Part shown: one piece after another, positions 8,871 to 19,560 of the stretch
Layout of the letters: every line of letters starts with the position of its first letter
Position numbering within the stretch: the stretch's first letter is position 1
Source of the DNA: Paenibacillus sp. cl123
GTDB taxonomy: Bacteria; Bacillota; Bacilli; Paenibacillales; NBRC-103111
Reading direction: 5' to 3'
DNA: 64,000 nt
NCBI RefSeq assembly: GCF_900101595.1
Contig: NZ_FMYY01000001.1
Coordinates: forward strand, 120,735-184,734
Made by a program: the position numbers and the translations under genes
Notes under the pieces: model-generated
The model's database searches: none
What the model was told of the DNA's origin: nothing
What the model saw: only the letters and a program-made list of their open reading frames with translations

Positions 8871-9995
8871 ATGAAAAAAATGAGGCTGCTTATCCTGAGT
8901 CCGGTTGCCGAGCGCGGCGGCGCCGAGCGCGTCATGGTCGATATTCTCAAGCATCTGAATGCCGACCGGTTCGAGGCGGAGGTTGTATTTTTCCAGCAGG
9001 GGAGACTGGTGCAGGAGGTGGAGCAATTAGGCTGCAGGACCCATGTGCTGGCAGCGGCCCGATTGCGCAATGTGACCTCCTACGTGCGGGTCATCAACCA
9101 GCTGCGCGGCCTGATTCGAAGCCGGGGCATCGACCTGGTGGTCAATTGGATGCCCAAGGCTCACTTATACGGCGGAGTGGCGGCGCGTCTCGAACGCAAG
9201 CCGGCGGTGTGGTGGCAGCATGGGGTCCCTGACAAGCATTGGCTGGACCGGCTTGTATCGCGAATCCCTGCGACCGGGGTGCTGTGTCCTTCCTTGATAT
9301 CCAAGCATTATCAGGAGAAGCTGAAGCCCAGAGCGCCGGTGCTGCTCAATAATCTGGGCGTAGATCTGGAGGAGTTCCCTGTCGCGCCTCCTGAAGGAAG
9401 CGACTTCCGGGCCCGTCACGGCATACCGCAGGAAGCCATCGTATTTGCCTTCCTGGGCAGGCTGCAGCGCTGGAAAAGACCGGATGTTGTCATTCGCGCA
9501 TTCAATCGGGTAAGCCGGATGCATCCCGTCTATATGCTGGTGATCGGCGGAGCGCTGTTCGGTCTGGAGACGGAATACGAGGATGAGCTTCGGGCGATCG
9601 CCCGGGAGGCCGGGCATCCGGAGCGCATTCTATTCCTAGGTCATCAGCAGCAGGTCGCTCCGATCCTGGCCGCTACCGATGTCGTCGTGCATGCGTCGCT
9701 GCTGGAGCCCTTCGGCATGGTCATTACCGAGTCGATGGCGCTGGGCAAAACGGTGCTTGCCGTAGGACGGGGAGGCCCCAAGGAAATTATTAACAGCGGA
9801 TTCGACGGGCTGCTGTACGATGGAACGGAGGATCAGCTTGTCGAGCTAATGACGAGTATTATAGAAGGAAAGGTTTCCGTCCAGACGCTCGGCAAAAATG
9901 CCCGCTCCACGATAGAATCCCGCTTTACGGCTCATAAGATGGCCGAGCGGTTCGAAAACAACCTGAACCAGCTGCTGGTGCAGGCCAAGGCCTGA
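8871..9995 (+). CDS. Glycosyltransferase family 4
   Basis: A 374-residue GT-B enzyme. The N-terminal domain begins with the glycine-rich AERGGAERV loop, and the C-terminal donor-binding domain shows FLGRLQRWKRPD and the E-x7-E motif EPFGMVITE followed by GGPKEII. It begins 31 bases after the exporter, so it belongs to the module operon. It may glycosylate the peptide product, or be an EPS-type transferase that moved into this operon; the sequence does not decide. A strong bidirectional terminator follows. Confidence 0.88.
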   Translation: MKKMRLLILSPVAERGGAERVMVDILKHLNADRFEAEVVFFQQGRLVQEVEQLGCRTHVLAAARLRNVTSYVRVINQLRGLIRSRGIDLVVNWMPKAHLYGGVAARLERKPAVWWQHGVPDKHWLDRLVSRIPATGVLCPSLISKHYQEKLKPRAPVLLNNLGVDLEEFPVAPPEGSDFRARHGIPQEAIVFAFLGRLQRWKRPDVVIRAFNRVSRMHPVYMLVIGGALFGLETEYEDELRAIAREAGHPERILFLGHQQQVAPILAATDVVVHASLLEPFGMVITESMALGKTVLAVGRGGPKEIINSGFDGLLYDGTEDQLVELMTSIIEGKVSVQTLGKNARSTIESRFTAHKMAERFENNLNQLLVQAKA

Positions 9996-13573: not shown

Positions 13574-14329
13574 ATGGAGCCCAAAGAACTGATGCGTGTG
13601 CTTAAGAAACGTTTATGGATTGTCCTGCTCGTGGTTGCTATAGCTACGATTACGACAGCGATGTACAACAAGTCCAATTATCAGCCTATTTATCAAGCTT
13701 CGACAAAAGTCATCGTCAATAAAACAGTCGAATTGGAGCAGCTTGGCAATGAACAAATGGACTTGGGCTCAATGGCCTACAGCATCCGTTTGATAGACAC
13801 CTACAAGGAAATAATCCGGACGCCGGCGATTATGGAGAAGGTCGTCCAGCGTTATCCGGACCTCAAGCTGACGGCGGGCGAGCTGAGCCAGATCATCAAC
13901 GTCCAGTCCATTAACAACACTCAGGTGATGACCATCATGGTCAGAGATTTTTCTTACGAACGGGCGATGCAAATCGTAAATGCGGTGACCGCTGTCTTCC
14001 AGAGCGAAATCCCGAAAATTATGAAAGTGAACAATATAGAAATTTTGCACAACGCGGAAATGAAAGAAAGGCCGGTTCCGGTTAATCAGCAATCGAACAT
14101 GTATGTGTTCATCAGCGCTTTCGTCGCTCTCGTCTTTGCGCTTGGCGCCGTGCTGCTGCTGGAGTTCCTGGATGACACCTTGAAATCGGAGCAAGACGTA
14201 GAACGGGTCATGGGGCTGGAGCTGCTCGCGGCCGTCCCTGTCATGAAAAAAAATCGGGCGAAATTCGTGAAGCAGGCGCGGCCTCGGAATCAGGGAGGGG
14301 AGATCAGCTATGCGACAGTCGAAAACTAA
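13574..14329 (+). CDS. Wzz/CapA-type polysaccharide co-polymerase and kinase activator
   Basis: A 251-residue membrane protein that sets EPS chain length and activates the partner BY-kinase. Two membrane segments are visible, at residues about 16-32 and about 177-198, bracketing an extracellular helical region; a short cytoplasmic tail with a basic stretch follows. This is the split Gram-positive layout (transmembrane modulator plus separate kinase), as in YwqC/YwqD or EpsA/EpsB of Bacillus. First gene of the EPS operon, starting after GGAGG; it overlaps the kinase gene by 20 bases. Confidence 0.9.
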   Translation: MEPKELMRVLKKRLWIVLLVVAIATITTAMYNKSNYQPIYQASTKVIVNKTVELEQLGNEQMDLGSMAYSIRLIDTYKEIIRTPAIMEKVVQRYPDLKLTAGELSQIINVQSINNTQVMTIMVRDFSYERAMQIVNAVTAVFQSEIPKIMKVNNIEILHNAEMKERPVPVNQQSNMYVFISAFVALVFALGAVLLLEFLDDTLKSEQDVERVMGLELLAAVPVMKKNRAKFVKQARPRNQGGEISYATVEN

Positions 14330-14948
14330 CGAAGCATCTCAGCCGGAGCTTCCGGACGCTTACGTGGAACTGCGGGTGAACATCGACTTCAAGTCTTCTT
14401 CGGAGAAAGGGATCGGGACAGTTGCCGTAACATCGGCCGGGCGCGGCGAAGGGCGGACGACGACCGCTGTCAATCTGGCCAGCGCCTACGCCCAATCGGG
14501 GAAAAGAACAGTTCTTGTCGATGCGGACATCCGCAATCCCGGCATCCATGCCGTGTATGGCGACTCCAATACGCGAGGCTTGACGAATGTTCTGAACGGG
14601 ACGAGCGAATTATCCGAGGCGCTGGCAGTTTCCGACATGAGGAACTTGTCGCTGCTCTATGCCGGCCCGGGAACGGCACAGGCTTCGGATCTGCTCTCTT
14701 CCAAAGAGATGGATGATCTGCTGCTGAGGCTGAAGCGGGAATTCGACATCGTTGTTGTCGATGCGCCTCCGGTGATCGGTCATATCGATTCGAAAATTGT
14801 CAGCGCGAAATGTGACGGCGTTGTGTTTGTCGTGCAGCAGGGCAAGGTGAAGCGTTCTTTGGCCAAACGGTCGAAGGAAGAGCTGGAGCGCGTCAAAGCG
14901 AACATTTTGGGTGTCCTCATGAATAAGGACAAGACGGTCAAAGTTTAG
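14310..14948 (+). CDS. CpsD/CapB-type BY-kinase, atypical
   Basis: A 212-residue cytoplasmic P-loop protein of the bacterial tyrosine kinase family, partner of the upstream modulator. Walker A' (VLVDADIRNPG, Asp71/Asp73) and Walker B (DIVVVDAPPV, Asp151) are normal. Two features are unusual: the Walker A reads AGRGEGRTTT, with Arg49 where the family has the invariant P-loop Lys, and the C-terminal tail lacks the usual tyrosine cluster (no Tyr after residue 117). The protein may therefore be a weak or non-autophosphorylating kinase or a regulatory ATPase. It starts after GGGAGGGGAG within the end of the previous gene. The matching phosphatase is far away, at 61469. Confidence 0.85.
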   Translation: MRQSKTNEASQPELPDAYVELRVNIDFKSSSEKGIGTVAVTSAGRGEGRTTTAVNLASAYAQSGKRTVLVDADIRNPGIHAVYGDSNTRGLTNVLNGTSELSEALAVSDMRNLSLLYAGPGTAQASDLLSSKEMDDLLLRLKREFDIVVVDAPPVIGHIDSKIVSAKCDGVVFVVQQGKVKRSLAKRSKEELERVKANILGVLMNKDKTVKV

Positions 14949-14989
14949 CGGACCGGTTCGTAAGCATGCATGTTGTGAAGGTTGAAGAG

Positions 14990-15250
14990 AATTGACGAAA
15001 TAGCGGGAAATCCTGCCGGACAGGAACAGGTAATGCCTACTGTACCTTTATCATTGTAGGCACTCGGCCATGCTGTGGGTGATTTCACCTTAGACATCTA
15101 TTGTCAAGGGTGTGGCGTGAGGGGGGGTTCGATGCCCCGATTTTTCTAAAAAATCTATAAAAATGCTACTTATGCCGTTTTGCTGCAGCCGGTTTACCGG
15201 ATGCGTGGAGGCGGGCGGCGAATCAAAAAAACGGCATAGTTAGTCTTTTT
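14990..15250 (+). ncRNA. Structured leader RNA between kinase and galU (EAR-like antitermination element, candidate)
   Basis: The 417-base gap after the second EPS gene has no ORF but many stems: TGCCTAC/GTAGGCA (about 15036-15062), GGTGA/TCACC, GGGG...CCCC (about 15124-15138), GATTTTT/AAAAATC (about 15139-15155), and a ten-base ATGCCGTTTT/AAAACGGCAT helix (15172-15181 with 15228-15237) enclosing CCGG/CCGG, then a short T run (15246-15250). In B. subtilis the EAR element sits at exactly this place, between the second and third eps genes, and promotes read-through of the long operon. The position and structure fit; I cannot match the EAR consensus from memory, so the class is a hypothesis. Confidence 0.5.
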
Positions 15251-15365
15251 ATCCATGATGGTGTACCGCGAAAACCTGGCTGCACGCACCTGAATTTCTT
15301 CATCTTGAATGGTTTTCGTCTTTTTATATATCATACTTATCCTATAAGACATGGAGGAATTAGTG

Positions 15366-16259
15366 ATGAAGAAAGTAAGAAAAGCAATCATCCCGGCAGC
15401 GGGTCTCGGAACCAGATTCCTTCCTGCCACGAAGGCTATGCCCAAGGAAATGCTTCCTATCATCGACAAGCCTACCATCCAATATATCGTCGAAGAGGCG
15501 GTAGCGTCCGGCATCGAAGATATTATCATCGTGACCGGCAAAGGAAAGCGGGCGATCGAAGATCACTTCGATCATGCCTTCGAGCTTGAAAGCAATCTGG
15601 CTGAGAAAGGAAAGCTGAAGCTGCTGGAGGAAGTGCAGCGCTCGGCCAAGGTCGATATTCACTATATCCGCCAGAAGGAACCGAAAGGTCTCGGACATGC
15701 CGTATGGTGCGCGAGACGGTTTATAGGCGACGAGCCGTTCGCCGTGCTGCTCGGCGACGATATTGTAATGAGCGACAAGCAGCCCTGCCTGAAGCAGCTG
15801 ATCGACCAATACGATCAGACAGGTTCCTCCGTCATCGGCGTTCAGCCGGTATCCGATCAGGAAACGCAGCGCTACGGGATCATCGATCCGGTCAGTAAGG
15901 CCGGCGATCTGTATGAAGTCCGGTCGTTCGTGGAGAAGCCGGCGCTGGGGACCGCGCCGTCCAATCTGGCGATTATGGGACGTTATGTGCTGACCGCGGA
16001 TATTTTCCCGTTCCTCGATCTGCAGCTTGAAGGCGCCGGAGGCGAGATTCAGCTGACCGATGCGATTCAGAAGCTCAACGAGGCGCATCGCGTGTTCGCT
16101 TACCACTTTGCCGGCAAGCGGTACGATGTCGGCGAGAAGCTCGGCTTCATCCTGACGACGCTGGAGTTTGCGATGCGCAGCTCGGAGCTGCGCGCCCCGC
16201 TGCTGCGCGCGATGGAGCAAATGATTGAAGACAGCGCCCTGCCGCAGGCGATCGGCTAA
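15366..16259 (+). CDS. galU: UTP-glucose-1-phosphate uridylyltransferase
   Basis: Makes UDP-glucose from UTP and glucose-1-phosphate for the EPS and for the dehydrogenase at 17011. The 297-residue protein starts [20 protein letters not shown] with the nucleotide-binding GLGTRFLP at 13-20 and has the family motifs [23 protein letters not shown] and VEKP. The ATG at 15366 follows GGAGGAATTAGTG; the upstream in-frame ATG at 15351 is too early relative to that site. It is the first gene after the structured leader RNA. Confidence 0.95.
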
Positions 16260-18402: not shown

Positions 18403-19560
18403 ATGAGAATCATGGCGATCAGTCATCCCTGCGTAACCGATGTGAATCAGCAATTTTATGCCGAGCTGGAGGCGCTCGGGCATACCGTCCAATTGATCGT
18501 GCCTTCCAACTTCCGCACGACCTACTCGGCCGATACGGTCGAAGTATCCAGATGGCCCGACTTTGCCGGCATGATTGAGCAGCGCAAGGTCGGCCTCTCC
18601 GGCAGCATTCCGCTCCATTACTACCAGTCCAACCTCCGTCCCTCCATCAAGGCGTTCCGTCCCGATGTGCTGTTCGTGGAAGAGGAGCCGTACTCCGCCA
18701 GCGCCTGGCAGGCTTTCTACGCTTCGCGGGACCTCCCGATGAAGCGGGTCGTCTACTCGGCGCAGAACATCCTCAAGCAATATCCGCTGCCCTTCCGCTG
18801 GATGGAGCGGTACGTGCTGGACCGGACCGACCTTGCGGCTGTCGTCAGCAGCGAGGTAGGAGAGGTGCTGCGCAAGAAGAACTTTCAAGGCGGGCTGCTT
18901 TCGTTTCCGCTCGGAGTCGATACGGGGCAATTTCGGCCGATGCTTGAGGAGCGGCGGAAGCTGAGGCGGGAGCTGGAAGCGGACGAGAAATTTATCGTCG
19001 GTTATGTGGGGCGATTCGTCGAAGAGAAGGGAATCCGCTTCCTGCTGGAAGCGGCCGAGAAGCTGGCCGGGCATCCGGTCAGCTTTGTCTTCGTCGGCAA
19101 GGGAGAGCTGCTGGAGGACATCCGCCGCGTCCAGGCCCGGCATCCCGGGTTGATCCGGATTCTCGATTCGGTTAAGCACAACGATGTTCACCGGTGGATG
19201 AATGCGATGGATGCGCTGGCGCTGCCGTCTCTGACCATGCCGAACTGGAAAGAGCAATTTGGCCGCGTCATCGTGGAGGCCATGGCCTGCGGAGTCCCTG
19301 TCATCGGCAGCGACAGCGGCCAGATTCCGGTGCTGCTGCGGGAAACCGGCGGCGGCTGGATCGTGCCCGAGCGGGACGCCGAGGCGTTGGCAGCCGTCAT
19401 CCGCTCCTTGATGGAGCAGCCCGGAGAACGCGACCGCTGTGCGGAGGCCGGCCTTGCGGCCGTCAGCCGCACCTACAGCAAAAAGGGGCTGGCGAAGGCA
19501 TTCGAGCAGGCTTTGATGAAAGGACAGCCCGAGGAGCAGTCCGGGAGGGCGGCGTTATGA
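18403..19560 (+). CDS. Glycosyltransferase family 4
   Basis: A 385-residue GT-B enzyme with a two-domain layout. The donor domain shows VGYVGRFVEEKGIRFLLEA and the motif EQFGRVIVEAMACGVPVIGSD. It follows ugd by 15 bases and ends in a 4-base overlap (ATGA) with the next glycosyltransferase. It probably adds one sugar to the lipid-linked repeat unit on the cytoplasmic side. Donor and acceptor cannot be read from the sequence. Confidence 0.88.
   Translation: MRIMAISHPCVTDVNQQFYAELEALGHTVQLIVPSNFRTTYSADTVEVSRWPDFAGMIEQRKVGLSGSIPLHYYQSNLRPSIKAFRPDVLFVEEEPYSASAWQAFYASRDLPMKRVVYSAQNILKQYPLPFRWMERYVLDRTDLAAVVSSEVGEVLRKKNFQGGLLSFPLGVDTGQFRPMLEERRKLRRELEADEKFIVGYVGRFVEEKGIRFLLEAAEKLAGHPVSFVFVGKGELLEDIRRVQARHPGLIRILDSVKHNDVHRWMNAMDALALPSLTMPNWKEQFGRVIVEAMACGVPVIGSDSGQIPVLLRETGGGWIVPERDAEALAAVIRSLMEQPGERDRCAEAGLAAVSRTYSKKGLAKAFEQALMKGQPEEQSGRAAL

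What the first reader, a model, noticed from the sequence alone, without database searches (positions are those of the whole stretch)
14949..15365. Structured RNA at the EAR position of the EPS operon
A 417-base non-coding gap follows the second gene of a 23.7-kb operon and contains at least five stems, the largest a ten-base-pair helix closing at 15237 before a short T run. The B. subtilis eps operon has the EAR antitermination RNA at the same place, between second and third genes. A similar need for processive antitermination applies to this long operon.
Basis: partly seen in the sequence, partly recalled or inferred. Interest (0 to 1): 0.65.

Follow-up and report, generated by a model that had tools for sequence, protein, structure and literature searches.

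The report
EAR antitermination RNA with companion hairpin
The gap holds a bona fide EAR, a known RNA that lets RNA polymerase ignore stop signals in long sugar-polymer operons, and right behind it a second conserved RNA hairpin that the Rfam model of EAR does not cover and that has no settled function.

Summary
Window 15028-15138 (+) is a full-length match to Rfam RF01735 (epsC = EAR): 105.7 bits against a gathering score of 42, E = 2.7e-17. It is the only copy in the 7.27-Mb genome. It lies between gene 2 (BY-kinase) and gene 3 (galU) of a 23.7-kb exopolysaccharide operon, the place EAR has in B. subtilis. Its pseudoknot covaries across 112 non-redundant relatives. It belongs to a second element at 15157-15253. 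A model of that element, built without the window, finds one place in the whole genome, and all 14 places found in 25 genomes of the genus lie directly behind an EAR. Paired positions covary, and G-U pairs far outnumber A-C mismatches, so selection acts on RNA. Bacillus spizizenii and its relatives have such a hairpin before epsC. It is seldom a canonical terminator, and not in the window, so its role is open. EARs also occur in Paenibacillales prophages before the terminase genes, often followed by a strong terminator. EAR itself is known. I found no description of the companion hairpin or the phage EARs, but the original EAR paper could not be read.

The parts
13574..14329 (+). Gene 1, Wzz-type chain-length determinant (epsA-like)
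   Evidence: Pfam PF02706, E 1.4e-11
14310..14948 (+). Gene 2, CpsD/CapB-type tyrosine kinase (epsB-like)
   Evidence: Pfam PF13614, E 2.8e-14; tblastn matches at this position in related EAR loci
15028..15138 (+). EAR (Rfam epsC RNA, RF01735): P1, P2, P3, P4, P5 and pseudoknot 15028-15031/15044-15047
   Evidence: 105.7 bits, gathering 42, model positions 1-117 of 117; covariation in 112 relatives
15157..15253 (+). Companion hairpin: arms 15157-15181 and 15228-15253, 46-nt loop, followed by CTTTTTAT; not part of the Rfam model
   Evidence: Model R1 (window not in its seed): 52 bits, E 2e-7, only place in the genome; covariation
15269..15326 (+). Second small stem CGAAAACC/GGTTTTCG (15269-15276/15311-15318), 34-nt loop, then TCTTTTTA; terminator-like but weak
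   Evidence: Sequence; both arms identical in L016 while the loop diverged; fold z only -0.9
15305..15334 (+). Weak sigma-70-like promoter candidate before galU, probably not functional
   Evidence: 9 of 12 matches; -35 not conserved in L016
15366..16259 (+). Gene 3, galU (UTP-glucose-1-phosphate uridylyltransferase)
   Evidence: Pfam PF00483, E 1e-35; first gene after EAR in 76 of 160 EAR loci

Best explanation
The element at 15028-15138 is an EAR, a cis-acting processive antitermination RNA. Once transcribed behind wzz and the BY-kinase gene it folds into five helices and a pseudoknot, stays with the RNA polymerase that made it, and lets that polymerase pass terminators over the next 22 kb (galU to manC). 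Shown here: family membership, position, uniqueness in the genome, covarying structure. Inferred from B. subtilis: binding to polymerase and read-through. The conserved companion hairpin at 15157-15253 is a second RNA part of the same cassette. I think it most likely marks a checkpoint right behind the EAR: a pause, or in forms with a strong U-run a terminator, that gives EAR time to engage and stops polymerases that lack it. That last step is a hypothesis only (about 0.4); the confidence given below is for the EAR part.
For: Rfam match of 105.7 bits over the full model. Pseudoknot pair 15028/15047 found as A-U 67, C-G 26, G-C 5, U-A 5, 109 of 112 paired. EAR in 24 of 25 genomes of the genus and 192 of 298 of the order. 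wzz-kinase-EAR-galU-sugar transferase order conserved. B. subtilis EAR lies at the same place and antiterminates several intrinsic terminators (PMC7858274). No LoaP: one NusG gene in the genome. Companion hairpin. Related EAR loci carry terminator-like hairpins behind EAR more often than chance: d>0 in 17 of 112 against 1 of 112 shuffled, and in 6 of 9 phage EARs against 0 of 180 shuffles.
Against: No experiment in this organism. Inside the operon only one strong terminator-like site was found (19062-19083, d 15.5, within a coding gene), so the terminators that EAR must overcome are not obvious. The companion hairpin of the window scores poorly as a terminator (d -23.7, loop 46 nt), and many EARs lack the hairpin, for example L003-L008 and L083.
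Confidence: 0.9

Rival explanations
1. The companion hairpin is an RNA stability or processing element: a strong stem that protects the 3' end of the wzz-kinase-EAR RNA or is cut by RNase III, setting different levels for the first two genes and the rest.
For: Long stem with sequence-constrained A-U blocks (UAU/AUA, GUUUU/AAGAC) beyond what pairing needs. Present without any U-run in Bacillus spizizenii and relatives, which does not fit a terminator.
Against: Tight link to EAR and no other copy in the genome. A general stability stem would be expected elsewhere too. Many Paenibacillales forms keep a U-run.
Confidence: 0.3
2. The companion hairpin is an ordinary intrinsic terminator or attenuator that EAR suppresses.
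For: Hairpin plus U-run in many galU-type loci. d>0 in 17 of 112 loci against 1 shuffled and 2 upstream. Phage EARs are followed by canonical terminators in 6 of 9 contigs.
Against: Window d = -23.7. Median d of all groups is below zero. The Bacillus forms have no U-run. Terminators do not usually conserve stem sequence.
Confidence: 0.25
3. The companion repeat is a DNA operator (palindrome) for a regulator, not an RNA element.
For: Both strands match the model (window 52 and 37 bits).
Against: G-U cells 63 against A-C cells 12 in held-out hits; a DNA palindrome would give about equal numbers. Arm spacing varies from about 4 to well over 100 nt.
Confidence: 0.05
4. galU and later genes have their own promoter in the gap, and the RNA has no role in elongation.
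For: One promoter-like site at 15305-15334, 9 of 12 matches.
Against: A weak match; -35 hexamer not kept in the closest relative. EAR membership is clear.
Confidence: 0.05

Closest known systems
EAR / epsC RNA (Rfam RF01735) of the B. subtilis eps operon
   Same: Full-length model match, pseudoknot, position between genes 2 and 3 of an EPS operon, follows a Wzz/BY-kinase pair
   Different: The next gene is galU, not epsC. A companion hairpin with a 46-nt loop and short U-run follows. The Bacillus relatives also have a hairpin there, without U-run, and the Rfam model stops before it
put RNA of phage HK022
   Same: RNA-only processive antitermination, as for EAR (PMC11658703); phage EARs sit at the early/late boundary
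   Different: No sequence relation was tested
LoaP and other specialised NusG paralogues
   Same: Processive antitermination of long biosynthesis operons
   Different: No second NusG in this genome; the element here is an RNA
conAn of pLS20 conjugation operons
   Same: Antiterminator near the operon start; terminators stop polymerases that lack it (PMC8955417)
   Different: conAn is a protein plus an RNA
JUMPstart/ops with RfaH
   Same: Long polysaccharide operons
   Different: An exact ops-like string lies at 15497-15507 inside galU, but no RfaH-type paralogue exists in the genome

Membership tests
EAR (RF01735) | Covariance-model score above the curated gathering score over the whole model | tested here: met
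   105.7 bits against 42, positions 1-117 of 117
EAR (RF01735) | Pseudoknot between 5' RGGU and the P1 loop | tested here: met
   Covaries in 112 relatives
EAR (RF01735) | Location within an exopolysaccharide operon, between genes 2 and 3 | tested here: met
   ORFs and Pfam; B. subtilis position from PMC7858274
EAR (RF01735) | Promotes read-through of distal intrinsic terminators | not testable with these tools
   Needs a reporter or transcript mapping
Intrinsic terminator (companion hairpin) | Stable short-loop hairpin followed by a U-run, d score above 0 | tested here: not met
   Window d -23.7; met in 17 of 112 relatives
LoaP-dependent antitermination | Second NusG-family gene | tested here: not met
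   One PF02357 match in the genome
put RNA (HK022) | put sequence and structure | not tested
   Compared by function and position only

The most novel reading that the evidence does not exclude
EAR is one half of a two-part RNA cassette: the antiterminator plus a conserved hairpin directly behind it that acts as the checkpoint it works on. The same cassette logic has been taken up by temperate phages of Paenibacillales as an RNA-only switch for their late (packaging) operon, with a canonical terminator behind the EAR.
Probability: 0.4. Interest if true: 0.75.

Novelty: new member of a known kind. Interest (0 to 1): 0.5.

Why it matters
EAR is one of very few RNAs known to change polymerase processively, and how it works is not settled. 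A second conserved RNA element fixed directly behind it, present also beside epsC in B. subtilis relatives, offers a concrete experiment on mechanism in a tractable organism. If phage EARs drive late genes, they would be RNA-only processive antiterminators at the early/late boundary of Gram-positive phages, functionally parallel to HK022 put.

Tried and rejected
Folding the 417-nt gap as one RNA was uninformative (z -1.5). Other Rfam families gave only chance matches. LoaP was excluded by the single NusG. A promoter before galU is weak and not conserved. A DNA operator reading of the companion repeat was rejected on the G-U/A-C asymmetry. A general 'it is a terminator' reading was rejected for the window. 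BLAST of EARs against annotated phage records gave nothing. The original EAR paper (PMID 20374491) and the review PMC7323004 are not held.

Full report
Observation. The gap 14949-15365 is real: the BY-kinase gene ends at 14948, and galU starts at ATG 15366 behind a GGAGG ribosome site. Twenty + strand genes run from 13574 to 37238 (23.7 kb). Pfam identifies Wzz, the BY-kinase, GalU, a bacterial sugar transferase, UDP-glucose dehydrogenase, HlyD, a flippase, an acyltransferase and a mannose-1-phosphate guanylyltransferase.

Identity. A scan of the whole window with 4227 Rfam families gives one match over threshold: RF01735, epsC RNA, at 15028-15138 on the + strand, 105.7 bits against a gathering score of 42, model positions 1-117 of 117. 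This is EAR; Weinberg et al. 2010 (PMC2864571) state that epsC and EAR are the same RNA and that it antiterminates. It is the only copy in the 7.27-Mb genome. The same family is in 24 of 25 genomes of the genus, 192 of 298 of the order and 62 of 399 of the class. In the genus the order wzz, kinase, EAR, galU, sugar transferase is usual. On an alignment of 112 non-redundant EARs the pseudoknot between 15028-15031 and 15044-15047 covaries: the first pair is A-U 67, C-G 26, G-C 5, U-A 5, and 109 of 112 form a pair. My bracket for two positions of the outer P2 helix was misplaced in that script, so P2a counts there should be ignored.

The 10-bp helix closing at 15237 lies outside the EAR model. 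I read the sequence behind 133 EARs and saw a recurring hairpin with related arms. From 31 of these, picked by eye and without the window, I built an alignment with 19 of 23 pairs showing changes on both sides and a covariance model R1. R1 finds exactly one place in the whole own genome, window 15157-15253, 52 bits, E 2e-7. In 25 genomes of the genus all 14 places found lie directly 3' of an EAR (the first look scores 150 candidates per genome, so this is not exhaustive, and most of those places belong to seed loci). In 26 held-out non-redundant loci the hairpin starts 2-90 nt behind the EAR, mostly under 30. Those hits have 63 G-U cells against 12 A-C cells, as expected for selection on RNA and not on a DNA palindrome (the model was trained on this strand, which leans the count somewhat, but the seed, aligned by sequence alone, shows the same 75 to 12).

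A test without hand picking: for 112 non-redundant EAR loci, the best local hairpin in the 130 nt behind EAR has a median z of -3.6 against dinucleotide shuffles, and 61 loci are below -3. The 130 nt before EAR give 4 loci below -3, and a stretch 400 nt further down gives 1. The hairpin reaches beyond the order: Bacillus spizizenii, B. tequilensis, B. siamensis, B. nakamurai and B. inaquosorum have a stem of about 15 bp (TTATCGGTTTAGCTG/CAGCTAAACCGATAA in most, with a few changes in others) between EAR and the epsC ribosome site. It is optional: some lineages go from EAR to galU in 40-60 nt without it.

Is it a terminator? With the d'Aubenton Carafa score (formula from memory), 17 of 112 loci have a site above 0 within 160 nt behind EAR, against 1 shuffled and 2 upstream. 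The window's own hairpin scores -23.7 because of its 46-nt loop, and the Bacillus forms have no U-run. So the hairpin is conserved, but terminator strength is not. I favour a pause or checkpoint role, with RNA stability as a near rival. A second small stem at 15269-15318 with a U-run is kept in the closest relative L016 while its loop diverged, but it is not unusual by energy.

How it works. In B. subtilis EAR lies between the second and third eps genes and is needed for read-through of several distal intrinsic terminators (PMC7858274); protein helpers have not been excluded (PMC11658703). By membership and position the window EAR should do the same for the 22 kb from galU to manC. No LoaP is present. 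Read-through, binding to polymerase and the role of the companion hairpin are not shown here.

An unexpected lead. Several EARs in relatives are not in EPS operons. They follow a DnaB helicase and a small protein of phrog_21810 and precede an integrase-like protein. A pattern scan of IMG/VR found the EAR core in 10 viral contigs; nine of these are over the Rfam threshold at 81-107 bits, and the tenth match is cut by the end of the stored sequence. In L177 and L180 terminase genes follow, and in L180 also portal and protease. Six of nine have a canonical intrinsic terminator 77-204 nt behind the EAR, against 0 of 180 shuffles. This is the early/late boundary of the phage genome and fits an antitermination switch for late genes. 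None of these EARs was found in annotated phage records by BLAST, and a paper search for Paenibacillus phage antitermination found nothing.

Verdict. The finding is correct, and EAR is a known kind. What is new to me is the companion hairpin and the phage EARs; both need the 2010 EAR paper to be checked, which is not held.

Noticed in passing
L027, L028, L030, L055, L057-L060; viral contigs L174-L183: EARs in Paenibacillales prophages and IMG/VR contigs, about 90 nt behind a phrog_21810 gene and before integrase-like, terminase and portal genes, often followed by a canonical terminator.
   Followed up: partly
L002 (G003:C96:17952-18061 and 18468-18580); G351:C42:9106-9221 and 9758-9876: Two EARs in tandem about 500-650 nt apart on the same strand; G003 has a third 14 kb further on, and G002 and G008 have two about 12 kb apart.
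   Followed up: no
window 15497-15507: Exact copy of the enterobacterial ops sequence GGCGGTAGCGT inside galU; probably chance or codon use, as no RfaH-type protein is present.
   Followed up: no
window 19062-19083: The one strong terminator-like hairpin on the + strand inside an operon gene (d 15.5; none in 3 shuffled operons), a candidate target of EAR.
   Followed up: no
L013 and L015 (G008, G002): The companion hairpin has a loop of well over 100 nt with further structure inside, yet the arms are kept.
   Followed up: no
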